From assembly GCA_018268595.1 (NCBI GenBank), contig JAFDWH010000026.1:248001-312000 (forward strand): 64,000 nt of DNA, in the 5' to 3' direction. Shown piece after piece: positions 3,331 through 58,700 of the stretch (position 1 is the stretch's first letter; the number at the start of each line of letters is the position of its first letter). The translations under genes were made by a program, and so were the position numbers. Source of the DNA: Actinomycetota bacterium. GTDB lineage: Bacteria; Actinomycetota; Thermoleophilia; Solirubrobacterales; Solirubrobacteraceae. The notes beneath the pieces were generated by a model. The model saw only the letters and a program-made list of their open reading frames with translations. It did no database searches and was not told the origin of the DNA.

Positions 3331-3345
3331 TATCCTTTCTGAAGT
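3331..3345 (+). promoter_or_regulatory. -10 element fused to ACTT-N4-AAGT-type operator (moeZ-like gene)
   Basis: TATCCT (3331-3336) is a -10 hexamer and its end forms the left arm of ATCCTT-TCTG-AAGTCA. The same arrangement, with the arm in the same register relative to the -10, occurs before cysM (5262) and trxB (58684). No TTGACA-like -35 is seen. The gene itself has a GAGGAG Shine-Dalgarno at 3366, so this message has a leader of about 40 bases. Confidence 0.6.
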
Positions 3346-3380
3346 CACGAAAGCCGACCCCCTTTGAGGAGTTTTCCCGA

Positions 3381-4562
3381 ATGAGCCCGTCCGGCGCGGA
3401 GCTGCTCCGCCAAGTCAAGAGCCAGATCGAAGAGGTCGATCCCGCGGTCGTCGCCGAGCATCTCGGGAACGGCATGGTGCTCGTCGACGTGCGCGAGACG
3501 GACGAGTTCGGCGTCGCGCACATCCCCGGCGCAAAGCACGTGCCGAAGTCCTACCTGGAGACGCGCATCGAGGCCGCCGCGCCCGACAAGGACGCGTGGG
3601 TCGTCCTCTACTGCGCCTCCGGCAACCGCTCGGCGTGGGCGGCGCGCACGCTGACCGAGGACCTCGACTACAAGAGAGTCGCCTCGATGACGGGCGGGAT
3701 CGCGCTGTGGAAGGACCGCGGCTACGAGGTCGCGACCCCGAAGGCGCTCACCGCCGAGCAGCGCGACCGCTACTCGCGCCACCTGCTGATGGACGAGGTC
3801 GGCGTCGAGGGTCAGATCAAGCTGCTCGAGTCGAGAGTGCTGCTGCTGGGCGCCGGCGGGCTCGGCGCCCCGACCGCGCTCTACCTTGCGGCGGCCGGCG
3901 TCGGCACGCTCGGGATCGTCGACAACGACGTGGTGGACCTCTCCAACCTGCAGCGCCAGGTGATCCACACGCAGGACCGCGTCGGCGTGCCGAAGGTCGA
4001 CTCGGCCGAGCAGACGATCGCGAACCTGAACTCCGACGTGAAGGTCGTCAAGTACCCGGTCCGCATCGACGCCTCCAACATCATGGAGATCATCGAGGGC
4101 TACGACGTGATCGTCGACGGGCTCGACAACTTCCCGACGCGCTACCTGCTCAACGACGCCTCGGTGCGGCTGAGAATCCCGGTCGTGTCGGCCTCGATCC
4201 TCGGCTTCGACGGTCAGCTGTCGGTCTTCGCGCCGTACGAAGGGCCGTGCTACCGCTGCCTCTACCCGACGCCGCCGCCGGCCGAGCTGGCGCCGTCCTG
4301 CGGCGCGAACGGCGTGCTCGGCGTGCTGCCGGGGACGATGGGCCTGCTGCAGGCGACCGAGGTCGTGAAGCTGATCCTCGGCGAGGGCGAGCCGCTGATC
4401 GGGCGCCTGCTGCTGTACGAGGCGCTCGGTGCGACGTTCACCGAGCTGAAGGTGCGCCGCGACCCCGACTGCCCGATCTGCTCGCGCGAGCCGGAGTCGA
4501 TCTCCGACGACGAGATGGGCGTGTTCCCCGACTACGAGGCGTTCTGCGCCGCGGCGGGCTAG
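3381..4562 (+). CDS. Rhodanese-ThiF/MoeB sulfur-carrier activating enzyme (MoeZ-like, inverted domain order)
   Basis: A 393-residue enzyme expected to adenylate the C-terminal glycine of a ubiquitin-like sulfur carrier and convert it to a thiocarboxylate. Residues 15-120 are a rhodanese domain with active-site loop CASGNRS (Cys78). Residues 125-393 are an E1-like ThiF/MoeB domain with GAGGLG (157-162), DNDVVDLSNLQRQ, and zinc cysteines Cys290/Cys293 and Cys364/Cys367. Known MoeZ proteins carry the rhodanese at the C-terminus; here it comes first. ATG 3381 has a GAGGAG Shine-Dalgarno. Its TAG stop is followed after 12 bases by cysO, its likely substrate, and cysM and the JAMM protease lie just beyond. 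Confidence 0.9.
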   Translation: MSPSGAELLRQVKSQIEEVDPAVVAEHLGNGMVLVDVRETDEFGVAHIPGAKHVPKSYLETRIEAAAPDKDAWVVLYCASGNRSAWAARTLTEDLDYKRVASMTGGIALWKDRGYEVATPKALTAEQRDRYSRHLLMDEVGVEGQIKLLESRVLLLGAGGLGAPTALYLAAAGVGTLGIVDNDVVDLSNLQRQVIHTQDRVGVPKVDSAEQTIANLNSDVKVVKYPVRIDASNIMEIIEGYDVIVDGLDNFPTRYLLNDASVRLRIPVVSASILGFDGQLSVFAPYEGPCYRCLYPTPPPAELAPSCGANGVLGVLPGTMGLLQATEVVKLILGEGEPLIGRLLLYEALGATFTELKVRRDPDCPICSREPESISDDEMGVFPDYEAFCAAAG

Positions 4563-4574
4563 GGTTCCGCTCCT

Positions 4575-4853
4575 ATGGCTACCGTCAAGATCCCACCGGT
4601 CCTGCGCGCGTCCGTCGGCGGCGAGAAGGAAGTCGCCGCCGACGGCGCCTCCGTCGGCGAGGTGCTCAACGCGCTCGCCGCGGCGCACCCGCAGACGCAG
4701 ACGCAGCTGTTCTCATCCGAGGGCGAGCTGAACCGCTACGTGAACGTCTACCTCAACGACGAGGACGTGCGCGTGCTCGACGGCCTGCAGACGGCCGTCG
4801 GCGAGGGCGACACGCTGGTCATCCTGCCGGCGATGGCCGGCGGCTCCCGCTAA
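4575..4853 (+). CDS. cysO: CysO-type ubiquitin-like sulfur carrier
   Basis: A 92-residue MoaD/ThiS-fold protein. The stretch RYVNVYLNDEDVRVLDGLQTAV and ILPAMAGG closely resemble mycobacterial CysO, which carries sulfide as a thiocarboxylate to O-phosphoserine on CysM. The diglycine is residues 89-90, but the protein continues with Ser-Arg, so the glycine cannot be adenylated until two residues are removed; the JAMM protease gene at 6508 is an obvious candidate. Initiation appears leaderless: TAGGGT (4560-4565), whose TAG is the stop of the preceding gene, lies 9 bases before the ATG. Its stop overlaps the end of the convergent XRE gene by 4 bases. Confidence 0.9.
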   Translation: MATVKIPPVLRASVGGEKEVAADGASVGEVLNALAAAHPQTQTQLFSSEGELNRYVNVYLNDEDVRVLDGLQTAVGEGDTLVILPAMAGGSR

Positions 4854-5101
4854 CGCTCGGCGGCGTCGAACGCGTCCGCGATCTCGCGGAAGAACTCGCC
4901 GAGCTGCATGTCGAGCCCGCCTGCGAGCGCGACCATCGATTCCAGCTTGGGGTCGAGCTCGCCCCGCTCCGCCTGACCGGGGTACTTGTGCCCGAGCTTG
5001 CCGGCGCGGGCGACGTCCTCCTGCGTGAGCCGCCGTGCGCGCCGCATCTGTCGTACCGCCGACGCGAAGATGCGGCGCTCTCTCTCGGCGGGCGGCGGCA
5101 C
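4850..5101 (-). CDS. Small XRE-family DNA-binding regulator
   Basis: An 83-residue protein consisting almost only of a Cro/C1-type HTH: RRLTQEDVARAGKLGHKYPGQAERG, then LDPKLESMVALAGGLDMQLGEFF. It starts with GTG at 5101 and lies inside the cysteine module, convergent with cysO and divergent from cysM. A compact dimeric repressor of this type would suit a short palindrome such as the ACTT-N4-AAGT boxes at 3331, 5262 and 58684, making it a candidate regulator of the module; that is inference. A separate palindrome at 5137 lies in its own upstream region. Confidence 0.8.
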   Translation of the reverse strand: MPPPAERERRIFASAVRQMRRARRLTQEDVARAGKLGHKYPGQAERGELDPKLESMVALAGGLDMQLGEFFREIADAFDAAER

Positions 5102-5136
5102 CTCCGAGACTCTTCTGACGAGCGGGTCAGAAATAC

Positions 5137-5151
5137 ACCCCTTGCAGGGGT
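5137..5151. promoter_or_regulatory. 15-bp palindrome upstream of the XRE gene
   Basis: ACCCCT-TGC-AGGGGT is a perfect inverted repeat in the AT-richer gap between the XRE gene and cysM (5102-5277). It lies about 36 bases before the GTG of the XRE gene and about 130 before cysM. It could be an autoregulatory operator or a short hairpin; no T tract follows. Confidence 0.4.
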
Positions 5152-5261
5152 TATTTTGAGTTGTATAAGGGGCTAAGTGGGGTTTAGAAGGGTGGTGTTG
5201 CCACTCGGGTCGTGTGCGATGGCGCGTCCCGGCCGACGCTGCTAGCTGAGCGAGGCCTCGC

Positions 5262-5277
5262 TACACTTCGTGAAGTT
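5262..5277 (+). promoter_or_regulatory. -10 element fused to ACTT-N4-AAGT operator (cysM)
   Basis: TACACT (5262-5267) overlaps the left arm of ACTT-CGTG-AAGT (5265-5276). The cysM ATG follows the -10 by 10 bases, which implies a leaderless mRNA whose start is covered by the box. Same register as the boxes at 3331 and 58684. Confidence 0.6.
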
Positions 5278-6249
5278 ATGGACGGGGAGCGCCTGCGCAA
5301 CAGACCCTGCGGGGGTCGCTACGGGGACCTCGTGCAGGCGATCGGCAACACGCCGCTCGTCGAGCTCAAGCGGCTCTCGCCGAAGCCCGGCGTGCGCATC
5401 TGGGCCAAGCTCGAGTCGCGCAACCCGACCGGCTCCGTCAAGGACCGCGTCGCACGCTCGCTGATCGAGGACGCGGAGGAGAAGGGCGCGATCAGACCCG
5501 GCCAGACGATCCTCGAGCCGACGTCGGGCAACACCGGCATCTCGCTCGCGATGATCTGCAAGCGCAAGGGCTATCCGCTCAAGGTCGTGATGCCGGACAA
5601 CGTCACGCAGGAGCGCACGCAGCTGCTGCAGATGTACGGCGCCGAGATCGTCTACTCCGACGGCTCGAAGGGCTCCAACGGCGCCGTCGAGCTGGCGCTG
5701 GAGATGGCCGCCGCCGACTCCTCGTACTACATGCCCTACCAGTACGGGAACGTCGCGAACCCGCTCGCGCACTACAACGGCACGGCGCTGGAGATCCTCG
5801 AGGAGCTGGACGAGATCTCCGCCTTCGTCGCCGGCCTCGGCACCGGCGGCACGCTGATGGGCAACGGCAGACGCTTCAAGGAGGAGCTGGGCGACGCGGT
5901 GAAGATCGTCGCCGCCGAGCCGATGCAGGGCGAGCCGGTGCAGGGCCTGCGCTCGCTCGACGACGGCTTCATCCCGCCGATCATCGATCTGTCGCTGCTC
6001 GACCGCAAGATCTTCGTCACGAACCGCGACGCGATCCTGTGGACCCGCAAGCTGCTCGACGAGGAGGGCCTGTTCGCGGGCGTCTCGACGGGCGCGATCG
6101 CACGCGTCGCGGTGCGGATCGCGAACGAGCTGGACGAGGGCAACGTCGTCTTCATCGTCGCGGACGACGGCTGGAAGTACCTCTCGTCCGGGATCTACAC
6201 GCTGCCGGTCGACGAGGTCGAGAACCTCGACTCGACCGTTTGGTGGTAG
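5278..6249 (+). CDS. cysM: CysM, CysO-dependent cysteine synthase
   Basis: A 323-residue PLP enzyme. IWAKLESRNPTGSVKDR carries the PLP lysine (Lys55), TSGNTGISLA binds the substrate carboxylate, and GLGTGGTLMGNGR binds the PLP phosphate. It is closest to mycobacterial CysM, sharing LLQMYGAEIVYSDGSKGSN and the C-terminal DDGWKYLSSGIYT, which in that enzyme belongs to the CysO-using type that accepts O-phosphoserine. With CysO and a JAMM hydrolase in the same locus, it should form the CysO-cysteine adduct. ATG 5278 is chosen because the promoter box sits directly in front; the upstream in-frame ATG at 5212 precedes that promoter. Confidence 0.92.
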   Translation: MDGERLRNRPCGGRYGDLVQAIGNTPLVELKRLSPKPGVRIWAKLESRNPTGSVKDRVARSLIEDAEEKGAIRPGQTILEPTSGNTGISLAMICKRKGYPLKVVMPDNVTQERTQLLQMYGAEIVYSDGSKGSNGAVELALEMAAADSSYYMPYQYGNVANPLAHYNGTALEILEELDEISAFVAGLGTGGTLMGNGRRFKEELGDAVKIVAAEPMQGEPVQGLRSLDDGFIPPIIDLSLLDRKIFVTNRDAILWTRKLLDEEGLFAGVSTGAIARVAVRIANELDEGNVVFIVADDGWKYLSSGIYTLPVDEVENLDSTVWW

Positions 6250-6294
6250 CCGCTACCATCGGCTGACCCCACCCGCAAGGAACGGAGCCTCTCG

Positions 6295-6498
6295 ATGTTC
6301 TCCCAGATCGGACCGATGGAGATCGTCCTGGTCCTCGTGATCGCCCTCCTGGTCCTCGGCCCGAAGCGCCTCCCCGAGGCCGGCCGCTCGATCGGCAAGG
6401 GCATGCGCGAGTTCAAGGACTCGATCGCCGGCATCAACAAGGACGAGGACGAGCCGCAGCAGGACCTCACCGCCGCGCGCGAGCGCGAGGCCGCCTAG
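6295..6498 (+). CDS. tatA: TatA/TatE twin-arginine translocase subunit
   Basis: A 67-residue protein with the TatA layout: short periplasmic N-terminus, one membrane helix (IVLVLVIALLVLG, residues 10-22), hinge FGPKRLP-like sequence (here LGPKRLPEAGRSIGKG), an amphipathic helix and a charged tail. It would polymerise into the Tat pore for folded proteins. Position 6254-6259 (TACCAT) may be a -10 and AAGGA at 6279 a Shine-Dalgarno, so it has its own leader. No tatB or tatC is nearby. Its place between cysM and the JAMM protease is unusual. Confidence 0.93.
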   Translation: MFSQIGPMEIVLVLVIALLVLGPKRLPEAGRSIGKGMREFKDSIAGINKDEDEPQQDLTAAREREAA

Positions 6499-6507
6499 CC
6501 GACGCGC

Positions 6508-6906
6508 ATGCGCATCGCCCGCGAGCTGTACGACCAGATCGTCGCGCACGCTCGCGCCGAGGCGCCGAACGAGTGCTGCGGCGTCGTCGCGACGAACGGC
6601 GACGGAAGCGCGCGGCGGGTCTTCGCGGCGACGAACAAGTTCGCCAGCCCGCTGCGCTTCGAGATCGACGGACCGGACCTGATCCGGATCATCGACGCGA
6701 TCGACGACGAGCAGCTCGAGCTCGGCGCGATCTACCACTCGCACACGCGCACCGCCCCGGAGCCGTCGCAGACGGACGTGAACCACGCCGCCGCGTGGCC
6801 CGGCGCGCTGTGGATCATCGTCGGGCTCGCCGGCGAGCAGCCCGACGTGCGCACGTGGGCGATCGAGGACGGCCGCGTCGCGCAGGTGGAGCTGATCGTC
6901 GAGTAG
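6508..6906 (+). CDS. mec: Mec-type JAMM zinc metalloprotease
   Basis: A 132-residue single-domain JAMM/MPN+ hydrolase. The catalytic Glu is in APNECCGVV (Glu22), and the zinc site is HSHTRTAPEPSQTD (His77, His79, Ser87, Asp90). Mycobacterial Mec releases cysteine from the CysO-cysteine adduct. Because CysO here ends in Gly-Gly-Ser-Arg, the same enzyme may also trim the precursor, as a JAMM protein does for QbsE in Pseudomonas; that second role is inference. It follows tatA by 9 bases and is followed after 2 bases by the zinc-ribbon gene, so the three are probably co-transcribed. Confidence 0.92.
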   Translation: MRIARELYDQIVAHARAEAPNECCGVVATNGDGSARRVFAATNKFASPLRFEIDGPDLIRIIDAIDDEQLELGAIYHSHTRTAPEPSQTDVNHAAAWPGALWIIVGLAGEQPDVRTWAIEDGRVAQVELIVE

Positions 6907-6908
6907 GC

Positions 6909-7319
6909 GTGGCGCTCGTCCCGCTCCTCTGCCCGACCTGCGGCGAGGCCTTCGGCGACGAGGAGCGCTTCTGCCCGCGCTGCGGCGTCCCGCTCGTGCG
7001 CGCGGACGCCGACGAGCAGCCGCCGGCCGGCCGGCTGCGCGAGCGCGTCCGCAAGGTCAAGCCGCAGTACAGCGAGGGGGAGCTGGTGCGGGTCGCGCGG
7101 GCGGGGCACCAGGCCGAGGCGGAGCTGATCCAGAACCTGCTGCTGGAAGAGGGGATCCCCAGCATGACGAAGCGCAGCGGCGGCTTCGACGTGCCCGACT
7201 TCCTCGCCGCCGGACCCCGCGACGTGCTGGTGCCGCAGTCGGGCGCCGACGCGGCGCGCGAGCTGCTCTCGCCGGCGGACGAGGCGTCAGGCGGCGCCGG
7301 CGATCCGCGCGAGGTGTGA
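6909..7319 (+). CDS. Zinc-ribbon protein with DUF2007-type domain
   Basis: A 136-residue protein with an N-terminal double CXXC zinc ribbon (LLCPTCGEAF and FCPRCGVPLV). A C-terminal domain of DUF2007 type follows (LVRVARAGHQAEAELIQNLLLEEGIPS to DVLVPQSGADAARELL). GTG at 6909 is 2 bases after the mec stop. Its role is unknown; DUF2007 proteins resemble small ACT-like or PII-like modules. The C-terminus overlaps the convergent gene at 7287 by 33 bases. Confidence 0.75.
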   Translation: MALVPLLCPTCGEAFGDEERFCPRCGVPLVRADADEQPPAGRLRERVRKVKPQYSEGELVRVARAGHQAEAELIQNLLLEEGIPSMTKRSGGFDVPDFLAAGPRDVLVPQSGADAARELLSPADEASGGAGDPREV

Positions 7320-8045
7320 GCGCCAGGCACCCTCGGTGTGGTCGAGCGAGCGGCCGCGGAAGGCCTCGCGCAGCGCGTGCCGCGGGCCGGCCGGGTCGAT
7401 GAAGCAGGCGAGGCGCATCGCGGCCTCCGGACCCTCTTCGCGCGCCAGCAGGTCTATCAGCGTCGGTCCGAGCAGCGCGGCGTCGCGCAGCTTCGGCGGG
7501 AAGTCGGGTCGCTCGCCCTCGCGCAGGCGGCGCGCGATCGCCGGGCGCGCGTGCTCGACCTGGCCGGCGAAGTAGCGCGCCGTGCCCTCGACGAGCCACG
7601 CCCAGCGCAGCCGCGCCAGCAGCCGCGCCGGCGTCGCGGACGGCGGCAGCCGGCGGTTGTTGAGCCCGACGACGAGCCGCGCGTAGAGCACGTCGGGAGC
7701 CCGCTCGAGCATCTCGCGGGAGCCGGGGACGGCGGAGGCGCGTCTGCGCAGCGCCTGCGGCGCGAGCACGTGGATCGTGTGGGCCCCGCCGGTCGAGCCG
7801 ACGACGTAGCGGCGCGCCGCGGGCGCGGTCAGCAGCCGCTCGAGCGGCACGAGCGGGTGCGCCAGGTCGAGCAGCCGACTCGAGCGGTGGAAGACGACCG
7901 TGACGTCGGCGGCCGTTCTCGGAAAGACGATCTCCAGGCGGGCGCGCGTCGCTTCGAGCGAGTCGAGCGCGCGTGCGACGTCGTCGGTGTCGGCCGACTC
8001 GTGGCGCGCGCGGAACGACTGCGTGACGGTCTCGACCCAGGCCAT
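7287..8045 (-). CDS. Unknown protein, possible inactive peptidase-MA-like fold
   Basis: A 252-residue protein I cannot assign with confidence. WAWLVEGTARYFAGQ resembles the 'EGxAxY' helix that follows HEXXH in peptidase MA-like proteins. The region where HEXXH would be expected (DVLYARLVVGLNN) has no such motif, so if related it is probably catalytically dead. No signal peptide or membrane helix is seen. Start at 8045 (MAWVETV) gives a compact product; there is no clear Shine-Dalgarno. It follows the DUF1802 gene by 46 bases on the same strand. Confidence 0.55.
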   Translation of the reverse strand: MAWVETVTQSFRARHESADTDDVARALDSLEATRARLEIVFPRTAADVTVVFHRSSRLLDLAHPLVPLERLLTAPAARRYVVGSTGGAHTIHVLAPQALRRRASAVPGSREMLERAPDVLYARLVVGLNNRRLPPSATPARLLARLRWAWLVEGTARYFAGQVEHARPAIARRLREGERPDFPPKLRDAALLGPTLIDLLAREEGPEAAMRLACFIDPAGPRHALREAFRGRSLDHTEGAWRSHLARIAGAA

Positions 8046-8091
8046 GGAAAAGACCGCGGCGGCGCCCGTCAGGCGCGCCGCCGCGGGGGGA

Positions 8092-8724
8092 TCAGACGAG
8101 GACCGGCGTGCGGTCGCCCGCGACGATCCCGGCGATTTCCTCGGAGGCGCGCTCGAACTCGTCGTCGGACAGGACCGGCGTGCCCTCGAACGGCAGGTCA
8201 CGCGTGATCTCGAGCCACGACCGGCAGCCGCCGAACTCGTCCCGCACCTTCACCGTGACAGGGCGCGGGATGCGGTACGTGCGCAGCAGCACGACGTGCA
8301 ACGGGTGACGGCGCTTCCACGCCAGGCGCTTCTCGGCGTAGTCGGGCGTCCACACGTAGAACGGCGAGAGCGCGTCGACCACGCGGGGATCGGTGATCGT
8401 CCAGTGGTCGGCGACCTCGGCCCACGCGCGAATTCGCACGCGGTCGGGCTGCGGGATGTCGCCGTCACGCGTCAGGGCGTGCAGCGGTGGGTCGCCCTCG
8501 GGCCAGACGCCCTCCTCGAGCGCGCGCAGCAGCTCCGGCTGATGCGACTCGCGCACGAGGTCCTCGCGCTGGTGGTCGAAGGTGGGGTACAGGAAGAAGC
8601 GCTCGTGTTCGAGCGCGAAATGCTTGTCAGGCTCGCGAATGCCGCCCTTGCGCAGCGTGACCAATTGCTCGCCTTCGGCGAGCGCACGCACGGTGACGGC
8701 CCATTCTTTGAAAGCAATCGGCAT
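8092..8724 (-). CDS. DUF1802 family protein
   Basis: A 210-residue protein. MPIAFKEWAVTVRALAEGEQLVTLRKGGIRE, FALEHERFFLYPTFDHQ and the aromatic YVWTPDYAEKRLAWKRRHPLHVVLLRTYR are hallmarks of DUF1802, a family of unknown biochemistry sometimes found near restriction or defence genes; I see none here. ATG 8724 begins exactly at the conserved MPIAFKEWA. The 154 bases upstream (8725-8878) are the most AT-rich in this part of the window and probably hold its promoter, but I cannot fix -10/-35 elements. Confidence 0.8.
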   Translation of the reverse strand: MPIAFKEWAVTVRALAEGEQLVTLRKGGIREPDKHFALEHERFFLYPTFDHQREDLVRESHQPELLRALEEGVWPEGDPPLHALTRDGDIPQPDRVRIRAWAEVADHWTITDPRVVDALSPFYVWTPDYAEKRLAWKRRHPLHVVLLRTYRIPRPVTVKVRDEFGGCRSWLEITRDLPFEGTPVLSDDEFERASEEIAGIVAGDRTPVLV

Positions 8725-8878
8725 GGGTTTCCGGGAGGGGAGAAGGTGCGTATCAACCGTGCATGTGCGGTGAGACTGCGACCCGCGCACGGGTGGCCCA
8801 TTCTACGTGAAGCCCTAGGAATTCCATAATTTCCCTGCAATTTGCGCTATTCTGCCGCAATCCGCGCGAGCGTCTGCG

Positions 8879-10363
8879 CTAGCCTTGCCCGCCGCCTCCG
8901 GGCGTCTCGATGCGCAGGCGCCGACCCGGCGCGAGCGTCCCGCGGGCCTTCGGCGGCAGCTCCGCCCCGTCGAGCAGGTTGCGGCCGCGGGCTCCCGGCT
9001 CGCCGCCGCCGGCGCCCGGCGGGGCGTGGCGCCGGCGCTCCGTCAGCAGCGAGAACGTCATCGGCGCGAGCGCCTCGACCTCCCGCACGACGCCGTCGCC
9101 GCCGCGGTGGCGCCCGCCGCCGCCCGACCCGCGCCGCAGCGCGTACTCCGTCACGCGCAGTGGGAACTCCAGCTCGAGCGCCTCGATCGGCGTGTTGAGC
9201 GTGTTGCTCATCGCGACGTGCACGCCGCTGGGGCCGTCGGCGTCGGGACATGCGCCCTGGCCGCCGCCGAGCGTCTCGTAGTAGGTGAAGGACTCGTCGC
9301 CGAGCGTGAGGTTGTTCATCGTCCCCTGGCCGAGCGCGCGGCCGAACGCCGCCAGCACGAGGTCGGCCACGCGCGAGGAGGTCTCGACGTTGCCGGCGAC
9401 GACGGCGGCGGGTGACCGGGCGTTCAGCAGCGAGCCCTCCGGCGCGCGCACCTCGATCGGCCGGTACGTGCCGGCGCTCGGCGGGATGTCGGGATCGGTC
9501 AGCACGCGCACCGCGAAGTAGCAGGCCGAGCGCGTGACCGCGAGCGGACAGTTGAGGTTGCCGTCGTGCTGCTCGGCGCTGCCGGCGAAGTCGAGGATCA
9601 GGCGGTCGCCCGCGACGGTTGCGCTCAGCCGCAGCTCCAGATCGCCGTCGGCGCCCTCCAGCAGATCGCTCGCGCTGCGGGTGCCGTCGGGCAGCGCGGC
9701 GAGGCACGCGCGCGTGCGCCGCTCGGCGTAGTCGAGCACCTCGTCCATCGCGGCGCGCAGCGTGGCGAGGCCGACGCGATCGCACAGCTCGCGCAGCCGC
9801 TGCGCGCCGGCGCGGTTCGCGGCGAGCTGCGCGCGCAGGTCGGCACGGCGCTGGTCCGGCTGGCGCATCTGCGCGGCGAGTCGCGCGATCGCCTCCTCGT
9901 CGAGCGGCTGCGGCGCGATCACGACGCCCTCGTCGGCGAGCGTGCGGCTGTCGGCCGGCATCGAGCCGGGCGTCGGGCCGCCGACGTCGGCGTGGTGCGC
10001 GCGGCAGGCGGCGAAGCCGAGCAGCTCGTCACCGGTCCCGCCCGCCCCCGCGAACACCGGCGTCACGACGGTGATGTCCGGCAGGTGCGTGCCGCCCTTG
10101 TACGGGTCGTTGAGGACCCAGGCGCGGCCCGGCGCGTGCGCCTCGTCGCGCACGGCGGCGACAGCGGCCGGCATCGCGCCGAGGTGCACGGGGATGTGCT
10201 CCGCCTGCATCACCATCTCGCCGCTCGCGTCGAACAGCGCGGTCGATGCGTCGCGGCGCTCCTTGATGTTGGCCGAGTGCGCCGAGCGGATCAGCACGGC
10301 GCCCATCTCCTCGCAGCTCGCGCGCAGCGCGCCGAGGATCACCTGCAGCTCAACGGGGTCCAC
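8879..10363 (-). CDS. hyuB: Hydantoinase B / N-methylhydantoinase beta-type subunit
   Basis: A 494-residue HyuB-family protein, which with HyuA forms ATP-dependent hydantoinase, 5-oxoprolinase or acetone-carboxylase-like enzymes. Typical stretches are VILGALRASCEEMGAVLIRSAHSANIKERRD, HIPVHLGAMP, VLNDPYKGGTHLPDITVVTP, NVETSSRVAD and GGGGRHRGGDG. The length fits the family. The first 14 bases overlap the end of hyuA, indicating one operon with coupled translation. Substrate cannot be told from sequence. The 3' end has an AT-rich gap before DUF1802. Confidence 0.9.
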   Translation of the reverse strand: MDPVELQVILGALRASCEEMGAVLIRSAHSANIKERRDASTALFDASGEMVMQAEHIPVHLGAMPAAVAAVRDEAHAPGRAWVLNDPYKGGTHLPDITVVTPVFAGAGGTGDELLGFAACRAHHADVGGPTPGSMPADSRTLADEGVVIAPQPLDEEAIARLAAQMRQPDQRRADLRAQLAANRAGAQRLRELCDRVGLATLRAAMDEVLDYAERRTRACLAALPDGTRSASDLLEGADGDLELRLSATVAGDRLILDFAGSAEQHDGNLNCPLAVTRSACYFAVRVLTDPDIPPSAGTYRPIEVRAPEGSLLNARSPAAVVAGNVETSSRVADLVLAAFGRALGQGTMNNLTLGDESFTYYETLGGGQGACPDADGPSGVHVAMSNTLNTPIEALELEFPLRVTEYALRRGSGGGGRHRGGDGVVREVEALAPMTFSLLTERRRHAPPGAGGGEPGARGRNLLDGAELPPKARGTLAPGRRLRIETPGGGGQG

Positions 10364-50979: not shown

Positions 50980-50994
50980 GTTTGGTTGCCAAAC
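50980..50994. promoter_or_regulatory. 15-bp perfect palindrome upstream of the AraC-type gene
   Basis: GTTTGG-TTG-CCAAAC lies between the AraC-type gene (starting 50953, - strand) and the divergent CBS gene (51151). Likely an operator. Confidence 0.45.
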
Positions 50995-51634: not shown

Positions 51635-51654
51635 GAGCGGGCGAGTAGCCGCGC

Positions 51655-51888: not shown

Positions 51889-51903
51889 GGCGTGCTGGTT
51901 GGG

Positions 51904-52014: not shown

Positions 52015-52058
52015 GAGAGCGTGAATCCTATCGAGGTCGGGGACGGGCCGGCGTCGCG

Positions 52059-52967
52059 CTAGAGCTTGGCGTCGGCCACCATCGCGCCGAACAGCAGCGC
52101 GAGGTAGAGCAGCGAGTAGAGGTACAGGCGCAGCGCCGCACGGCGATCCGGATTGCGCTGGAGGCGCACGGCGAGCCACAGGAAGACGCCGCCGAGGAGG
52201 CCCGCGGCGACCGCGTAGAGGCCGTCGAACAGGCGCCCGGCGAACGGCAGCAGCGTGATCGCCACGAGCAGCGCGCTGTAGAGCGTGATCTGCCTGCGCG
52301 TCTCGTCTTCGCCGCGCACGACCGGCAGCATCGGGACGTCGACCTTCGCGTACTCGTCCTTCATCAGCAGCGACAGCGCCCAGAAGTGGGGCGGGGTCCA
52401 GTAGAAGACGATCGCGAACAGGTACAGCGCGACCGGGTCGAGCGAGCCGGTGACGGCCGCCCAGCCGACGAGCGGCGGGACCGCGCCGGCGGCGCCGCCG
52501 ATCACGATGTTCTGCGGCGTCGAGCGCTTGAGCCACAGCGTGTAGACGAACACGTAGCCGAGGAAGCCCGACAGCGCCAGCACGGCGGCCAGCACGTTGA
52601 CGGTGAGGCTCAGCTCGGCGAACGACAGCACGGCGAGCGCGATCCCGAACGTCAGCGCCGCGCGCGGGGAGACGCGCCCGGCCGGGATTGGCCGCGTCGC
52701 GGTGCGCGCCATGCGCAGGTCGATGTCGCGGTCGTACCAGTGGTTGACCGCGCCGGCCCCGCCGGCGGACAGCGCGCCGCCGAGCAGCGTCAGCAGGATC
52801 AGGCCGACCGACGGGCTGCCGGCGACCTCCATCGTCGCGACCGTCGTCAGCAGCAGCAGCAGCTGGACGCGCGGCTTCGTCAGCGTGACGTAGTCGGCGA
52901 TCAGCTGACGCAGGCGCGTGCGCGTGACGACCGTGCGAGCGGGGGAGGTGATGCGAGACGCTTCCAC
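52059..52967 (-). CDS. ctaB: Protoheme IX farnesyltransferase (heme O synthase)
   Basis: A 302-residue UbiA-family prenyltransferase making heme O for the oxidases. YVTLTKPRVQLLLLLTTVATM, the diphosphate-binding AVNHWYDRDIDLRMARTATRPIPAGR and YTLWLKRSTPQNIVIGGAAGAVPPLVGW are diagnostic; about eight membrane helices. It lies 48 bases behind ctaD2 on the same strand. The heme A synthase ctaA is not in the window. Confidence 0.95.
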   Translation of the reverse strand: MEASRITSPARTVVTRTRLRQLIADYVTLTKPRVQLLLLLTTVATMEVAGSPSVGLILLTLLGGALSAGGAGAVNHWYDRDIDLRMARTATRPIPAGRVSPRAALTFGIALAVLSFAELSLTVNVLAAVLALSGFLGYVFVYTLWLKRSTPQNIVIGGAAGAVPPLVGWAAVTGSLDPVALYLFAIVFYWTPPHFWALSLLMKDEYAKVDVPMLPVVRGEDETRRQITLYSALLVAITLLPFAGRLFDGLYAVAAGLLGGVFLWLAVRLQRNPDRRAALRLYLYSLLYLALLFGAMVADAKL

Positions 52968-53015
52968 GACCGATGGCAGCCTAGCGCGAGAGACCGGCGA
53001 GCCGGGCCGCCATCG

Positions 53016-54719
53016 TCAGACGAAGCTGACGGGCTGCCCGGCGGTCTCGCCGTGCTCGACGCCGGACTGGCGCTCGACCTGGCGGCGGATGTCCTTCATC
53101 GGCTCGACCGAGCGGATGCGCGGGACGACGTCGAAGTTGTTGACCGGCGGCGGCGAGGTGGTGAACCACTCGAGCGTGTTTGCCTTCCACGGGTCCGGCC
53201 CGGCGATCGCGCCGCGTCTGTAGCTGCGGATGAAGTTGATCACCGACAGCAGGATCCCGAAGCCGAGGATGAACGAGCCGACCGTCGAGATCTGGTTGTA
53301 GGCCGTCAGGCCGGCGTCCGCCGGGTACTGGTAGACGCGCCGCGGCATGCCCGAGAGGCCGGCCGCGTGCTGGACCAGGAACGTCACGTTGAAGCCGACG
53401 AACATGAGCCAGAAGGAAGCCTTGCCGAGCGGCTCGCTCAGCATCCGGCCCGTCATCTTCGGATACCAGTAGTAGAGCCCGCAGAAGATCGTGAAGACCG
53501 CGCCGCCCATCAGCACGTAGTGGAAGTGCGCGACGACGAAGTACGTGTCGGTCAGCTGCCAGTCGACGGGGAAGACCGCGAGGAAGATGCCGGTGATGCC
53601 GCCGATCACGAAGATCGAGATGAAGCCGGCGGCGAAGTACAGCGGCGTCTTGAAGTCGAGCGTGCCGCGCCACAGCGTCGCGATCCAGTTGAAGATCTTC
53701 ACGCCCGTCGGCACCGCGATCAGGAACGACGAGAGCATGAAGAAGCCCAGCACGACCGTCGGCACCGGCACGGCGAACATGTGGTGGGCCCACACGAGCG
53801 CCGCGAGGAAGGCGATCACGACCGTCGAGGCGGCGATCGCCTTGTAGCCGAAGATCGGCTTGCGCGCGAACACCGGCAGGACCTCGGAGATGATCCCGAA
53901 GCCCGGCAGGATCATGATGTAGACCTCGGGGTGCCCGAAGAACCAGAAGAGGTGCTGCCACAGGATCGGCGACCCGCCCTGGGTCGGGTCGAAGAAGTGC
54001 GTGCCGAAGTTGCGGTCCGTCAGCAGCATCGTGACGGCGCCCGCGATCACCGGCAGGGCGAGGATCAGCAGCAGCGCGTAGATCAGGATCGCCCACACGA
54101 ACAGCGGCAGGCGGCCCCAGCCCATGCCGGGTGCGCGCATGTTCACGATCGTCGCGTAGAAGTTGATCGCGCCGACCAGCGAGGAGATGCCGGTGATGTG
54201 GATCAGGTAGATCCACGCGTCCTGGCCGCCGCTCGGCGTGAAGACCTCGCTCGAGAGCGGCGTGTAGGAGAACCACCCGGCCTCCGGCGGCTGCCAGAAG
54301 ACGGAGGAGTAGAAGACGATGCCGCCGAACAGGAGAAGCCAGTAGGAGTACGCGTTCAGGCGCGGGAACGCCATGTCGCGCGCGCCGATCATCAGCGGCA
54401 GGAAGTAGTTCGCGAAGCCCGCCATCATCGGCACGACGAACAGGAAGATCATCGTCGTGCCGTGGAGCGTGAACAGCTCGTTGTAGTGCTCCGGCGTCAG
54501 CAGGTTGTTGTTCGGCGTGCCGAGCTGCAGACGGATGAGCAGCGCCTCGACGCCGCCGATCAGGAAGAAGGCGAACGTCGTGACGATGTAGAGGATCCCG
54601 ATCTTCTTGTGGTCGGTCGTGGTGAACCACTCGGTCCACCGCGCGCGCGTGGGCTCGGCCTTGACCTCGTGGGCGATCACCTGGGGCACTGGACGCAGTG
54701 CGTAGTCGGTGGTTGCCAT
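53016..54719 (-). CDS. ctaD: Cytochrome c oxidase subunit I, A1 type
   Basis: A 567-residue oxidase core with twelve helices. Heme ligand FTLHGTTMIF, CuB and proton-path motif LFWFFGHPEVYIMILPGFG (Glu present, so A1 type), VWAHHMF and VVAHFHYVLMGG are all intact. Unlike the first oxidase it starts directly at the standard core (TTTDHKKIGILYIVT) after a short tail. It pairs with the upstream subunit II gene at 54762. No subunit III gene is in this cluster, so it may share ctaE at 45989. Confidence 0.96.
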   Translation of the reverse strand: MATTDYALRPVPQVIAHEVKAEPTRARWTEWFTTTDHKKIGILYIVTTFAFFLIGGVEALLIRLQLGTPNNNLLTPEHYNELFTLHGTTMIFLFVVPMMAGFANYFLPLMIGARDMAFPRLNAYSYWLLLFGGIVFYSSVFWQPPEAGWFSYTPLSSEVFTPSGGQDAWIYLIHITGISSLVGAINFYATIVNMRAPGMGWGRLPLFVWAILIYALLLILALPVIAGAVTMLLTDRNFGTHFFDPTQGGSPILWQHLFWFFGHPEVYIMILPGFGIISEVLPVFARKPIFGYKAIAASTVVIAFLAALVWAHHMFAVPVPTVVLGFFMLSSFLIAVPTGVKIFNWIATLWRGTLDFKTPLYFAAGFISIFVIGGITGIFLAVFPVDWQLTDTYFVVAHFHYVLMGGAVFTIFCGLYYWYPKMTGRMLSEPLGKASFWLMFVGFNVTFLVQHAAGLSGMPRRVYQYPADAGLTAYNQISTVGSFILGFGILLSVINFIRSYRRGAIAGPDPWKANTLEWFTTSPPPVNNFDVVPRIRSVEPMKDIRRQVERQSGVEHGETAGQPVSFV

Positions 54720-54761
54720 GATCGGTACGGGTTCCTTTGTCTGCTTGGCGGGGAGGGCGGC

Positions 54762-55667
54762 TTACAGGATGCCGTCGGAGGTGAGCTGTCTGCGCAGCCC
54801 GACGACCTGTCGGTTCGCGTCGCCGATCGCGGTTCTCTGATCGGCGAGCCAGGTCTGGTACTCGTCCGGCGTCACGACTCTCACGCGCGCCGTCATGTCG
54901 GCGTGGTTGCGGCCGCACAGCTCGGCGCACTGGCCTCTGTACAGCTCGCCGGCGCGGGGCGCCTTGAACCACGTGAAGTTGCGGTAGCCCGGGACGGCGT
55001 CGAACTTGCCGCCGAGCTTTGGGATCCACCAGGAGTGGATGACGTCCGTCGCCTCGATGTCGAGGACGACGGTCGTGTCCGCCGGGACGACCATCTCCTG
55101 GTAGGAGTAGGGCAGCCCGAACGCGTTCGACTTGCAGCTCGCGCCGTACGTGTAGCGCCAGATGTACTGGCGGCCGGTCACGCAGATCGTGAGCTTCTTG
55201 CCGTTCGGCGGGGTCGGCTCGGTCGTCGAGGCGGTCAGCACGCCCTGGGCGAGCTGGAGGCCGTTCGCGCCGCTGTTGGGCGGGTCCTGGATCGAGCCGA
55301 GCTTCGCGAACGTGACGGCCGCGAGGACGACGAGGATCAGCGCGGCGCCGACGGTCCAGGTGATCTCCAGGCGGGTGTTGCCGTGGATCTGGGCGGCGAC
55401 GCGGCCCTTCTTGGCGCGGAACTTGACGAGCGAATAGAAGAGCGCACCCTCCACGACGACGAACACGACGATCGCGATGTAGAGGATGATCTTGTAGAGC
55501 GAGTCGATCTGGTTGGCGTTCGGCGATCCACCCGATTCAGGGGTGAGGAAGTCGGCGAACGCGCCGCTGGCGAAGACGAGCGAGGCGATCGTCGCGAGCA
55601 GCAGGGCCGCGACGAGGCGGCGGCGGAAAGAGGATTCAGGTCGCAAGGCGGCGCGGATTCTACTCAT
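54762..55667 (-). CDS. ctaC: Cytochrome c oxidase subunit II (CuA only)
   Basis: A 301-residue subunit. Signal or first helix (RRLVAALLLATIASLVFASGAFA), a second and third helix (IILYIAIVVFVVVEGALFY, VGAALILVVLAAVTFA), then the CuA domain with HSWWIPKLGGK and CAELCGRNHADM. There is no cytochrome c domain, in contrast to the subunit II at 49412, so it needs a separate electron donor. CVTGRQYIWRYTYGASCKS carries an extra cysteine pair. It is 41 bases behind the crotonase gene. Confidence 0.94.
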   Translation of the reverse strand: MSRIRAALRPESSFRRRLVAALLLATIASLVFASGAFADFLTPESGGSPNANQIDSLYKIILYIAIVVFVVVEGALFYSLVKFRAKKGRVAAQIHGNTRLEITWTVGAALILVVLAAVTFAKLGSIQDPPNSGANGLQLAQGVLTASTTEPTPPNGKKLTICVTGRQYIWRYTYGASCKSNAFGLPYSYQEMVVPADTTVVLDIEATDVIHSWWIPKLGGKFDAVPGYRNFTWFKAPRAGELYRGQCAELCGRNHADMTARVRVVTPDEYQTWLADQRTAIGDANRQVVGLRRQLTSDGIL

Positions 55668-55707
55668 GAGGCGGCGGAGTGACTCACCAGGGTCGGGGGG
55701 ACGGTGA

Positions 55708-56520
55708 TCAGCGGCCCTGGAACGACGCGGGGCGCTTCTGCAGGAAGGCTGTCACACCCTCGAGGAAGTCGTCGGTCCGTGCCTGCTCCTGCTGGATCGA
55801 CGCCTCGAGCGCGAGCTGCTCCTGCAGCGTGCGGTAGGCCCAGGCGTTGAGCTGGCGCTTCGCGCCGGCGTACGCGCGCGTCGGCCCGGTCGCGAGCCGC
55901 TGCACGAGCGCGTCGGCGGCGGCCGCCAGTTCGTCGTCCGGGTGGACCGCGTTGACGAGGCCCCACGCGAGCGCCTGCGGGCCGTAGACGCGCTCGCCGA
56001 GCAACGCCATCTCGAGCGCGCGCGTGAGACCGACGCGCGCCGGGATGAAGGCCGAGGAGCCGCCGTCGGGGACGAGCCCGATGTTCACGAACGCGAGCAG
56101 GAAGTAGCCCGACTCGGCGGCCAGCACGACGTCGCAGGCGAGCGCCAGCGAGCAGCCGACGCCGACGGCGCCGCCGTTGACGGCCGCGACGACCGGCTTC
56201 GGCAGCTCGCGGAGCGTCGTGATGACCGGGTGGTAGCGCTGGTGCAGCGCCGTCTCGAGGTCCGGCTTGCCGTCGGCTCCGACGTCGAAGCCGGCGGACA
56301 GGTCGGCCCCGGAGCAGAAGCCGCGGCCGGCGCCGGTCAGCAGCACCGCGCGCAGCTCGTCGTCCGCGGCGACGCGGGCGAGCGCGGCCTGCAGGTCGCG
56401 CGTGAGCGTGTCCTCCCATGCGTTCATCTTGTCCGGGCGGTTCAACTCGATCCGCGCGGCGCCCCCGGCGCGCTGCAGGGTGACCGTCTCGTAGGCGTGC
56501 AGCAGCTCGTAGTCGCTCAT
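55708..56520 (-). CDS. Enoyl-CoA hydratase/isomerase family, PaaG-like
   Basis: A 270-residue crotonase-fold enzyme. RIELNRPDKMNAW, TGAGRGFCSGADLSAGFD (oxyanion hole) and AAVNGGAVGVGCSLALACDVVLAAE are standard. The stretch FVNIGLVPDGGSSAFIPARVGLTRALEMALLGE with Asp instead of the catalytic Glu pair is closer to PaaG isomerases than to classic hydratases. Its substrate is therefore uncertain. TAGCAT (56533-56528, - strand) is 7 bases before ATG 56520, so a leaderless start. It precedes the aa3 oxidase genes in the same orientation. Confidence 0.85.
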   Translation of the reverse strand: MSDYELLHAYETVTLQRAGGAARIELNRPDKMNAWEDTLTRDLQAALARVAADDELRAVLLTGAGRGFCSGADLSAGFDVGADGKPDLETALHQRYHPVITTLRELPKPVVAAVNGGAVGVGCSLALACDVVLAAESGYFLLAFVNIGLVPDGGSSAFIPARVGLTRALEMALLGERVYGPQALAWGLVNAVHPDDELAAAADALVQRLATGPTRAYAGAKRQLNAWAYRTLQEQLALEASIQQEQARTDDFLEGVTAFLQKRPASFQGR

Positions 56521-56580
56521 GCGGCGGATGCTATGGCGCGAAGCCGTGCCATGAGACAGCCCTCATATACTGCCCGCGCT

Positions 56581-57513
56581 TTGCGCAAGTCCAAGGCCAT
56601 CCGAGCCGCCGCGTGGACGGTCGTCGCCGCGGGGGTCGCCGCGCCGCTCGTGCGCCGCCGGACGCGCCTCCCGAAGCCGGTCGTGCTCGCGACCGCGGCC
56701 GCCGCCCCGGTCGCGGTGTGCGTCGCGCTCCCGCGCACGCGCGCGCGGGACGTCGCGACCTGCGCGCTCCAGATGTGGGCCTACCTGGCCGCGTACGAGA
56801 TGCCGCACGACGACCCGGAGGCGCTCGCGCGGCGGGTGCGGATCGACTACCCGGTGCGGATCGACCGCGCGCTGGGGCTCGGCGTGCCGCCGACGCTGCG
56901 GCTGCAGCGGCTGCTGTCCGCGCCCGGCGAGACGCGTCGCGTCGAGAAGGTGCTCGTGTGGACGCACTGGCTGTGGTTCGCGGTCCCGCATGGGACCACC
57001 GCGTACGTCCTGCTGCGCAGACGCGAGCGCTTCGGCCATGCGGCCGCGACCACCTACGCGGTCTTCGACCTCGGCGCGGTCGTGTACCACCTGCTGCCGA
57101 CCGCGCCGCCGTGGTACGCGGCCGAGAGAGGGCGCCTCGGCGACCGCCGCACCCCGCCCGTGCGGCGCATGATGGTCGAGTACGGCGAGCAGTTCTGGAA
57201 GCACCGCTGGGGGCCGCTCTACTCTCTGCTGGGAGGCAATCCCCTCGCCGCCATGCCGTCCCTCCACTTCGCCACGTCCGTCAACGCCGCGCACCTGCTG
57301 GCCGAGTCCGGTCCGGTGCAGGGCGCGATCGGCTGGACGTACGCGCTGACGCTCGGGCTCGCGCTCGTGTACCTGGGAGAGCACTACGTCGCCGACCTGC
57401 TCGCCGGGCTCGCGCTGACGGAGGGGGTGCGCGCGCTGGCGCCGGTCGTCGGTCCGGCGCTCGAGCGCGCGGCCGGCGTCGTGCAGGCGATCGAGGTCAA
57501 GGCACACGCCTGA
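56581..57513 (+). CDS. PAP2-family membrane phosphatase / inositolphosphotransferase-like
   Basis: A 310-residue membrane protein. The PAP2 active site is split between AAMPSLHFATSVNAA (His) and YLGEHYVADLLAG (His, Asp), as in the inositol-phosphoceramide-synthase-like subgroup. WTHWLWFAVPHGTTAYVLL and YGEQFWKHRWGPLY fit the same group. The TTG at 56581 is chosen because TATACT (56566-56571) ends 9 bases upstream; ATG 56551 lies before that promoter. The stop overlaps the next gene as TGATG, so both may act in lipid remodelling. Confidence 0.8.
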   Translation: MRKSKAIRAAAWTVVAAGVAAPLVRRRTRLPKPVVLATAAAAPVAVCVALPRTRARDVATCALQMWAYLAAYEMPHDDPEALARRVRIDYPVRIDRALGLGVPPTLRLQRLLSAPGETRRVEKVLVWTHWLWFAVPHGTTAYVLLRRRERFGHAAATTYAVFDLGAVVYHLLPTAPPWYAAERGRLGDRRTPPVRRMMVEYGEQFWKHRWGPLYSLLGGNPLAAMPSLHFATSVNAAHLLAESGPVQGAIGWTYALTLGLALVYLGEHYVADLLAGLALTEGVRALAPVVGPALERAAGVVQAIEVKAHA

Positions 57514-58661
57514 TGGCCGAGGACGCCGTCGAGCGCGCCGCACGGTCCCGGCTGCAGGACGCGCCGACGGGGTCGCTCGCGGAGTCGCCGCCGGCGCCGC
57601 CCCGGGACGCGCACCACGACGAGGAGGACATGCCGCGCGTCGCGCTGACGCGGCGCCGCGTGATCCTGTTCGCCGTCTTCGTGCTCGCGTCGATCGCGCT
57701 CCTGTATTTCGTCCTGCCGCAGCTCGACGGCGTGAAGGACGCCTACCGGAGAGTCTCCAGCGGCGACCACGCGTGGCTGGCGGCGGCGTTCCTCTTCCAG
57801 CTGCTGGCGATCGTGAGCTACGTCGCGCTGTTCCACGGCATCCACGTGCCGCCCGGCTCGCCGCTCACGCACGGCGACAGCTACCTGATCACGATGGCCG
57901 GGCTCGCGGCGACGCGGTTGTTCGCGGCCGGCGGCGCCGGCGGCGTGGCGCTGACGGCGTGGGCGCTGCGGCGCTCGGGGATGGAACGGCGCGAGGTGGC
58001 CGAGCGGATGATCGCGTTCCTGGTCGTGCTGTACGGCGTGTACGTGCTCGCGATGGTCGTGTGCGGCATCGGCCTGCGCGTGGGCATCCTGCCCGGCGCG
58101 GCGCCCTTCGGCCTCACCGTCGTGCCGGCGATCATCGGCGGCATCGTGATCCTGCTGTTCGGCGGGCTCGCACTGGTGCCGGAGGACTTCGAGCGGCGGA
58201 TCGAGCGGATGGCGCCGCGGCGGCCGCGGCTGGCGCGCTGGCTGCGGCGCTTCGCGCTCGCGCCGGCGTCGATGCGCGGCGGGATCCGCTTCGCGCTGCA
58301 CAAGGCGGTCCATCCGGACCTGGCGATGGTCGGGGCGGTCAGCTGGTGGGCGTTCAACGTCGCGATCCTGTGGGCGTCGTTCCGCGCGTTCGGCGAGGCG
58401 CCCCCGCTCGCCGTCATCGTGCAGGCGTTCTTCGTCGGGATGCTCGCGAACCTGCTGCCGATCCCGGGCGGCATCGGCGGCGTCGACGGCGGCATGATCG
58501 GGGCGCTCGCGGCGTTCGGGCTGCCCGCGGGCACGGCGGTGCTGGCGGTGCTCTCGTATCGTCTGTTCGCGTTCTGGCTGCCGACGGTCCCGGGCGTGAT
58601 CGCGTACTTCCAGCTGCGGCGGCGCGTCCAGCAGTGGCGGCACCGCGTCGTGATGGCGTGA
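57513..58661 (+). CDS. Lysylphosphatidylglycerol synthetase-like membrane protein (UPF0104)
   Basis: A 382-residue protein with about eight membrane helices of the LPG_synthase_TM family. The cytoplasmic N-terminus (residues 1-45) is charged. LTHGDSYLITMAGLAATRLFAAGGAGGVALTAWALRRSGMERREV and FFVGMLANLLPIPGGIGGVDGGMIGALAAFGLPAG are the conserved blocks. The catalytic lysyl-transferase domain is absent, so a flippase-like role is likely (family-based inference). Coupled to the PAP2 gene. Confidence 0.85.
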   Translation: MAEDAVERAARSRLQDAPTGSLAESPPAPPRDAHHDEEDMPRVALTRRRVILFAVFVLASIALLYFVLPQLDGVKDAYRRVSSGDHAWLAAAFLFQLLAIVSYVALFHGIHVPPGSPLTHGDSYLITMAGLAATRLFAAGGAGGVALTAWALRRSGMERREVAERMIAFLVVLYGVYVLAMVVCGIGLRVGILPGAAPFGLTVVPAIIGGIVILLFGGLALVPEDFERRIERMAPRRPRLARWLRRFALAPASMRGGIRFALHKAVHPDLAMVGAVSWWAFNVAILWASFRAFGEAPPLAVIVQAFFVGMLANLLPIPGGIGGVDGGMIGALAAFGLPAGTAVLAVLSYRLFAFWLPTVPGVIAYFQLRRRVQQWRHRVVMA

Positions 58662-58683
58662 GGGCGGGCGCCCGGCGGGGTGC

Positions 58684-58700
58684 TATACTTTGTGAAGTAT
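58684..58700 (+). promoter_or_regulatory. -10 element fused to ATACTT-N4-AAGTAT operator (trxB)
   Basis: TATACT (58684-58689), with an upstream TG (extended -10), overlaps a perfect palindrome ATACTT-TGTG-AAGTAT (58685-58700). This is the best-formed of three boxes; the others precede the rhodanese-ThiF gene (3331) and cysM (5262). Confidence 0.65.

What the first reader, a model, noticed from the sequence alone, without database searches (positions are those of the whole stretch)
3331..58700. Shared -10-embedded palindrome links the CysO cysteine module to thioredoxin reductase
Three promoters carry the same composite: GC-TA[T/C][A/C]CT followed in fixed register by T-N4-AAGT. They are TATCCTTTCTGAAGT (3331, rhodanese-ThiF gene), TACACTTCGTGAAGT (5262, cysM) and TATACTTTGTGAAGT (58684, trxB; perfect ATACTT-TGTG-AAGTAT). 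All three genes handle sulfide or thiols, and I found no fourth copy by eye in the window. A repressor that recognises ACTT-N4-AAGT over the -10 would switch sulfur assimilation and thiol reduction together. The 83-aa XRE protein encoded inside the module is the nearest candidate; an Rrf2-type protein encoded elsewhere is the main alternative.
Basis: partly seen in the sequence, partly recalled or inferred. Interest (0 to 1): 0.8.

Follow-up and report, generated by a model that had tools for sequence, protein, structure and literature searches.

The report
HxlR-type repressor regulon for thiol genes
Three short palindromes in this window belong to a larger set of matching DNA switches that, in one order of actinobacteria, probably let a single cysteine-bearing repressor control cysteine-making, thioredoxin, glutaredoxin and iron-sulfur genes together.

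Summary
The box is real. TAYMCTTNNTGAAGT occurs three times in the window, four times in the genome, and in 33 of 41 genomes (own plus 40 relatives): 73 copies against 2 for the reversed pattern. The copies sit before rhodanese-ThiF, trxA, trxB, glutaredoxin, cysM, erpA, an ABC exporter and a few others.

The site is a 17-bp inverted repeat, RCTTCA-N5-TGAAGY, whose left arm in target promoters is fused to the -10 hexamer.

The XRE protein is not conserved beside the module. The likely regulator is an HxlR/DUF24 protein encoded elsewhere. Its own promoter carries the palindrome in 60 of 61 distinct in-order orthologues and 0 of 21 from outside (best outside score 11 of 12). trxB promoters carry it in 23 of 24 genomes with the regulator and 1 of 5 without.

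Only five protein positions separate the two groups: three cysteines, one recognition-helix residue, one wing residue. Proposed mechanism: repression over -10/+1, relieved when Cys8 is oxidised or modified. DNA binding and sensing are inferred, not shown.

The parts
3329..3345 (+). 17-bp operator GCTATCCTTTCTGAAGT over the -10 of the rhodanese-ThiF gene
   Evidence: conserved before this gene in 27 of 29 genomes at 11/12 or better (28 of 29 at 10/12)
3381..4562 (+). rhodanese-ThiF/MoeB-type adenylyltransferase gene
   Evidence: PF00899 and PF00581; NF006444 over its cut-off
4575..4853 (+). CysO/ThiS-like sulfur-carrier gene, same transcription unit by position
   Evidence: PF02597; NF041918 SAMP1 over cut-off
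4850..5101 (-). 83-aa XRE-type HTH protein; judged not part of the system
   Evidence: HTH_3 at cut-off; no counterpart at the module in the relatives
5260..5276 (+). 17-bp operator GCTACACTTCGTGAAGT over the -10 of cysM; ATG begins one base after the site, so the transcript is probably leaderless (inferred)
   Evidence: 17 of 21 testable cysM promoters
5278..6249 (+). cysM/cysK-family cysteine synthase gene
   Evidence: PF00291; TIGR01136 at 342.4 bits, just under its 344.15 cut-off
6508..6906 (+). JAB-domain (Mec+-like) gene downstream of cysM
   Evidence: PF14464 over cut-off; desampylase model below cut-off
58682..58698 (+). 17-bp operator GCTATACTTTGTGAAGT over the -10 of trxB
58723..59700 (+). 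thioredoxin reductase gene (trxB)
   Evidence: PF07992; named by its family and position in the regulon, not by a TrxB-specific model

Best explanation
The three boxes are operators of an order-wide regulon run by one HxlR/DUF24-family winged-helix repressor encoded elsewhere in the genome (G000 contig C31:172155-172526, minus strand). A dimer binds a 17-bp inverted repeat RCTTCA-N5-TGAAGY. In the target promoters the left arm has been merged with the -10 hexamer (GC-TAYACT), so bound repressor covers about -14 to +3 and shuts out RNA polymerase. In its own promoter, and in some promoters of the main sigma factor gene, the same repeat sits just upstream of the -10 and overlaps the -35 side, giving autoregulation. 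Oxidation or electrophile attack on the invariant Cys8, at the tip of the first helix, with help from the lineage-specific Cys11, Cys18 and Cys37, is expected to release the DNA and turn on sulfur-carrier cysteine synthesis, thioredoxin and its reductase, glutaredoxin, Fe-S assembly and an exporter. Shown by sequence: the sites, their genes, conservation and co-loss. Inferred: that HxlR binds them, that it represses, and what it senses.
For: (1) 73 exact boxes in 41 genomes against 2 reversed-control matches. All 73 were classified: rhodanese-ThiF 22, trxA 9, trxB 9, glutaredoxin 8, ABC exporter 8, cysM 6, erpA-like 5, and one each of cysE, hxlR, rpoD, a CPWC DsbA-like gene, a VOC dioxygenase-like gene and, tentatively, an ABC-2 ATPase on the opposite strand. 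(2) hxlR is the only regulator gene (rpoD aside) found with the site. Its own promoter has it in 60 of 61 distinct in-order orthologues; random 168-bp windows reach 11/12 in 0 of 20,000. Thirteen of 13 named Solirubrobacterales-type loci, including Patulibacter minatonensis and Conexibacter sp. DBS9H8, have 12-13 of 13. (3) Distribution: strict box in 43 of 78 genomes of the order and 0 of 171 in other orders of the class. (4) Co-loss: trxB promoters carry a site in 23 of 24 genomes with HxlR and 1 of 5 without, Fisher p = 0.001, not corrected for relatedness; the one rhodanese-ThiF promoter out of 29 with background score belongs to G028, whose HxlR is diverged. (5) Only five HxlR positions separate 61 in-order from 21 outside sequences at the thresholds used: C11, C18, C37, L53 (in the predicted recognition helix 48-60) and T68 (wing). 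(6) Family: PF01638 at 102.1 bits against a cut-off of 20.8; best solved relatives HypR and YodB by sequence and fold, both redox regulators with a reactive N-terminal Cys (passages of PMC8063818 and PMC6943732). (7) The site lies at a different place relative to the -10 in hxlR and rpoD than in the other targets, which argues for a DNA-binding protein and against a sigma-factor element.
Against: No binding, expression or redox data exist here. G157 keeps a site without a detected HxlR, and G026 has HxlR but no site before trxB; L081 lacks the site before hxlR. G028 has a diverged HxlR, keeps a perfect site before trxB and lacks one before rhodanese-ThiF. Four of 21 cysM promoters and 20 of 30 rpoD promoters lack the site. 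One outside HxlR promoter scores 11/12 and six score 10 or more. hxlR is not next to the targets in the window, and the own genome has five further HxlR-family matches. The own-genome hxlR site ACTTCAGTTTGGAAAGT is weaker than most. HypR and HxlR of Bacillus act as activators, so repression is inferred from site position only.
Confidence: 0.82

Rival explanations
1. The box is the operator of a different repressor (XRE in the module, an Rrf2-type protein, or one of the other HxlR paralogues), and its presence before hxlR only means hxlR is another target.
For: A regulator gene may be a target without being the regulator. The own genome encodes several HxlR-family proteins and 21 XRE-type matches. 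G157 has sites with no detected HxlR orthologue.
Against: The XRE gene has no counterpart at the module in relatives. None of the 73 boxes was assigned to an Rrf2 or XRE gene. The site before hxlR is the most regular of all those tested (60 of 61), and protein changes in the DNA-binding region (L53, T68) track the presence of the operator.
Confidence: 0.1
2. The motif is a promoter element (extended -10 plus initiation region) read by RNA polymerase with a dedicated sigma factor or a polymerase-binding factor, not an operator.
For: In the target promoters the motif always contains a -10-like hexamer with the start of transcription expected inside AAGT, and many genes begin within a few bases of it. 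No conserved -35 is visible in the 73 aligned targets.
Against: In hxlR and rpoD promoters the same palindrome lies upstream of a separate -10. trxB variants such as ACTTCATTTTGTAAAGT keep the dyad but not the TAYACT hexamer.
Confidence: 0.05
3. Chance recurrence of a -10-like sequence in a G+C-rich genome.
For: Single two- or three-mismatch matches inside genes are common: 153 + 150 three-mismatch hits against 194 + 192 for the reversed pattern.
Against: Exact copies: 73 against 2 controls in 41 genomes, before the same gene families; unbiased promoter tests 27 of 29 and 17 of 21 against 0 of 20,000 windows.
Confidence: 0.01

Closest known systems
YodB, CatR and HypR of Bacillus subtilis (MarR/DUF24 redox regulators)
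   Same: Same fold and Pfam family; invariant N-terminal Cys at the tip of helix 1, like Cys6 of YodB and Cys14 of HypR (alignment; YodB described in passages of PMC8063818); short inverted repeat as operator (Bacillus operators recalled, not checked). One target in relatives is a VOC dioxygenase-like gene (L099), which resembles catE, a target of YodB and CatR (passages of PMC10458429).
   Different: Those control quinone, azo- and nitro-reductases and dioxygenases. Here the targets are thioredoxin, thioredoxin reductase, glutaredoxin, cysteine synthesis and Fe-S assembly, the operator is fused with the -10, and three further cysteines are conserved.
HxlR of Bacillus subtilis (formaldehyde activator)
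   Same: Family and fold; its N-terminal Cys11 corresponds to Cys8 (passages of PMC7835342).
   Different: Formaldehyde sensing needs the Cys11-Lys13 pair. Here the residue two after the Cys is an invariant Val10. Bacillus HxlR is an activator; here the site position implies repression.
SigR/RsrA thiol-stress regulon of Streptomyces (SigH/RshA in Corynebacterium)
   Same: Overlapping targets: trxB is a SigR target (passages of PMC9205884) and cysM is diamide-induced in S. coelicolor (passages of PMC4340878). That SigR also serves trxA, a moeB/thiF gene and hrdB is recalled.
   Different: Alternative sigma with Zn anti-sigma instead of a repressor. RsrA (TIGR03988) is over its cut-off in 0 of 41 genomes, though 25 of 41 have weak matches.

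Membership tests
HxlR/DUF24 (PF01638) regulators | Match to the Pfam family over its cut-off | tested here: met
   102.1 bits against 20.8 for the own-genome protein; 95.2 for the G035 orthologue
HxlR/DUF24 (PF01638) regulators | MarR-like winged-helix fold with helix 1 in the dimer interface | tested here: met
   Model of mean pLDDT 88.7; best Foldseek hits YodB and HypR, TM-score by target 0.69-0.80. Dimer not modelled.
Thiol-redox branch of DUF24 (YodB/CatR/HypR type) | Conserved reactive Cys at the start of helix 1 | tested here: met
   Cys8 in 61 of 61 in-order and 21 of 21 outside sequences; residue directly before helix 9-30 in the model. Reactivity itself not tested.
Thiol-redox branch of DUF24 (YodB/CatR/HypR type) | DNA binding changed by oxidation or electrophiles | not testable with these tools
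   needs protein
Formaldehyde-type HxlR | Cys-X-Lys pair on helix 1 | tested here: not met
   C8-P9-V10, V10 invariant in 82 sequences; requirement taken from passages of PMC7835342
SigR/RsrA system | RsrA-type anti-sigma factor | tested here: not met
   0 of 41 genomes over the TIGR03988 cut-off, 25 of 41 with weak matches; control: 2 of 14 genomes ring, 1 over the cut-off. SigR itself was not searched.
   No counterpart at the module in relatives; no room for it in six of six same-genus relatives
   Rrf2 genes were not searched; the 73 boxes include none assigned to one

The most novel reading that the evidence does not exclude
In Solirubrobacterales an HxlR/DUF24 protein has become the master thiol-redox regulator in place of SigR/RsrA, by gaining three cysteines and a new DNA specificity. 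The cluster Cys8-x2-Cys11-x6-Cys18-x18-Cys37 (all four present in 53 of 61 in-order sequences) is a metal or Fe-S site, or a persulfide switch, that reads cysteine and Fe-S status as well as oxidation, which would explain why Fe-S assembly and sulfur-carrier genes sit in the regulon. Against a strict four-Cys metal site: 8 of 61 sequences lack one or two of the three extra cysteines.
Probability: 0.25. Interest if true: 0.8.

Novelty: new variant of a known kind. Interest (0 to 1): 0.62.

Why it matters
It would give a whole bacterial order its thiol-stress regulon: regulator, operator and target list in one step. The overlap with SigR targets suggests that the same set of genes has been placed under an unrelated kind of switch in a sister lineage. 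The joint change of sensor cysteines, a recognition-helix residue and the operator offers a small, testable case of how a regulon arises. The nine papers searches made here listed no description of such a regulon; they cover only open-licence PubMed Central papers.

Tried and rejected
The XRE protein as regulator: rejected. ACTT-N4-AAGT as the true dyad: replaced by the 17-bp repeat after aligning 73 target boxes with hxlR promoter sites. A scan with three mismatches: useless, fewer hits than the reversed control. HxlR promoters in other orders: no common operator seen in the 20 looked at (of 85 outside genomes with a match), though L273 and L274 have GATACACTTTTTGAACC just before the start codon. 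tblastn first left 7 of 73 boxes unassigned; three were plainly cysM, and the others were read by eye. An earlier count said 11 of 30 rpoD promoters; the recount is 10 of 30, and this report uses 10. HypR and CatR/YodB papers (PMC3351151, PMC2937424) were not held.

Rows dropped before counts: one of 30 rhodanese-ThiF promoters was cut by the contig and 9 of 30 loci did not contain cysM, one of 30 trxB promoters (G141) was cut by the contig, the 94 HxlR sequences were reduced to 82 distinct ones (61 in-order, 21 outside: 20 from other orders of the class and one from Chloroflexota). The 22 genomes with HxlR were chosen because the strict box was absent; of the 8 others, six lacked HxlR at E <= 1e-28 and two had a diverged one. 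Scoring patterns differ between calls: and 76 used RCTWYMNNNNNTRAAGY in either orientation, another the same in one orientation, and 85 RCTWYANNNNNTRWAGY; each background was made with its own pattern (the background serves).
Full report
Observation. In the own genome (3.57 Mb, 31 contigs, 98.9% complete) there are four exact copies; the fourth precedes a thioredoxin gene. One-mismatch copies lie directly before an ABC exporter, a glutaredoxin-like gene and an erpA-like Fe-S gene; two other one-mismatch hits (L005 inside a gene, L009 discussed below) do not fit that pattern directly. With three mismatches the motif is no commoner than its reversed control, so only near-exact sites carry meaning.

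Conservation. In the own genome and 40 relatives, 33 of 41 have an exact copy, 73 copies in all, against 2 for the reversed pattern. I fetched all 73 and assigned the following gene: rhodanese-ThiF 22, trxA 9, trxB 9, glutaredoxin 8, ABC exporter 8, cysM 6, erpA-like 5, and one each of cysE, hxlR, rpoD, a CPWC DsbA-like gene, a VOC dioxygenase-like gene and, tentatively, an ABC-2 ATPase on the opposite strand. An unbiased test, starting from cysO orthologues rather than from boxes, gave a site of 11/12 or better before rhodanese-ThiF in 27 of 29 (28 of 29 at 10/12) and before cysM in 17 of 21, while 0 of 20,000 random 168-bp windows reached 11/12 and 1.5% reached 10/12.

The regulator. One of the 73 boxes lay before an HxlR-family gene (L031). 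Orthologues of it were found in 41 of 41 relatives, although G025 and some incomplete genomes gave only weak matches. Their promoters turned out to carry a longer, more regular dyad, ACTTCANTTNGTRAAGT. Aligning both sets column by column shows one 17-bp repeat, RCTTCA-N5-TGAAGY. In targets the left arm reads RCTAYA because the -10 hexamer TAYACT is written into it. Over 61 distinct in-order HxlR promoters, 60 score 12/12 in either orientation; L081 is the exception. Of 21 from outside the order none reaches 12, one reaches 11 and six reach 10 or more; the 20,000 random windows never reach 11. Named sequences place the group in Solirubrobacterales, with Patulibacter minatonensis and Conexibacter sp. 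DBS9H8 among them; 13 of 13 such loci have the site. The own-genome gene is G000:C31:172155-172526, minus strand, with site ACTTCAGTTTGGAAAGT.

Co-occurrence. A strict form of the target box is in 43 of 78 genomes of the order and in 0 of 171 genomes of other orders of the class; reversed control 0 of 249. HxlR at E <= 1e-28 is in 72 of the 78 and in 85 of the 171, so outside the order the protein exists without this operator. Among 30 in-order genomes picked because they lacked the strict box or lacked HxlR, trxB promoters carry a variant of the repeat in 23 of 24 with HxlR (two of them diverged) and in 1 of 5 without (p = 0.001, relatedness not corrected). The misses are G026 and, the other way, G157, a draft genome in which the gene may simply be unassembled.

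Co-evolution. Comparing 61 in-order with 21 outside HxlR sequences, only five positions pass the thresholds used (at least 85% in-order, at most 25% outside): Cys11, Cys18, Cys37, Leu53 and Thr68. Cys8 is invariant in both groups. In the predicted structure (mean pLDDT 88.7) residue 8 directly precedes helix 9-30, Leu53 is in helix 48-60, which is the recognition helix by analogy, and Thr68 is in the wing strand. All four cysteines are present in 53 of 61.

Mechanism. The closest solved relatives are HypR and YodB by sequence (HypR E = 7e-21) and by fold. In YodB the N-terminal Cys6 reacts with quinones or forms a disulfide and DNA is released (passages of PMC8063818); allicin modifies Cys14 of HypR and Cys7 of CatR (passages of PMC6943732). 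By position, Cys8 is the same residue. The site covers the -10 and the expected start in the seven main target families, which fits repression. In hxlR, and in the 10 of 30 rpoD promoters that have a site (background 0 of 20,000 at 11/12), it sits upstream of a separate -10. Gene order rpoD, a pilT-like gene, hxlR is seen in the own genome, and rpoD lies within the fetched flank of hxlR in 14 of 43 loci scanned for a sigma-factor signature; most other loci were too short to tell. Binding, repression and sensing remain inferences.

Relation to known systems. The target list overlaps the SigR regulon of Streptomyces; trxB as SigR target is from passages of PMC9205884, cysM induction by diamide from passages of PMC4340878, the rest is recalled. 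RsrA is over its model cut-off in 0 of 41 genomes, with weak matches in 25 and a limited positive control (1 of 14 control genomes over cut-off). Formaldehyde-type HxlR is excluded by the missing Cys-X-Lys pair. The nine literature searches listed nothing on this regulon; subscription journals are mostly outside that library.

Verdict. Observation confirmed, co-regulation supported, both named regulators not supported, a better candidate found. Confidence 0.82 that HxlR is the regulator acting through these sites.

Noticed in passing
L341 5451-5467 (G000:C31:175950-175966): A near-perfect operator (GCTTCACTTTTTGAAGT, reads on both strands) in the promoter of the main sigma-factor gene, 3.4 kb from hxlR; 10 of 30 relatives' rpoD promoters have a site.
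   Followed up: partly
window 4850-5101: The 83-aa XRE gene between cysO and cysM looks like a recent insertion in this genome: the gap is 704 bp here and 347-354 bp in six same-genus relatives.
   Followed up: yes
L273 and L274 (same class, other order): hxlR promoters carry GATACACTTTTTGAACC one base before the start codon, possibly a diverged operator outside the order.
   Followed up: no
L099 50-400 bases downstream of the box: A two-domain VOC dioxygenase-like gene under the box in one relative, reminiscent of catE under YodB/CatR.
   Followed up: no
window 5276-5278 and loci L052, L116, L042, L054, L055: In cysM and several glutaredoxin genes the start codon begins one base after the operator, so transcripts are probably leaderless.
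   Followed up: partly
L144: A 67% identical HxlR in Ktedonospora formicarum (Chloroflexota), closer than most outside orthologues; perhaps transferred between phyla.
   Followed up: no
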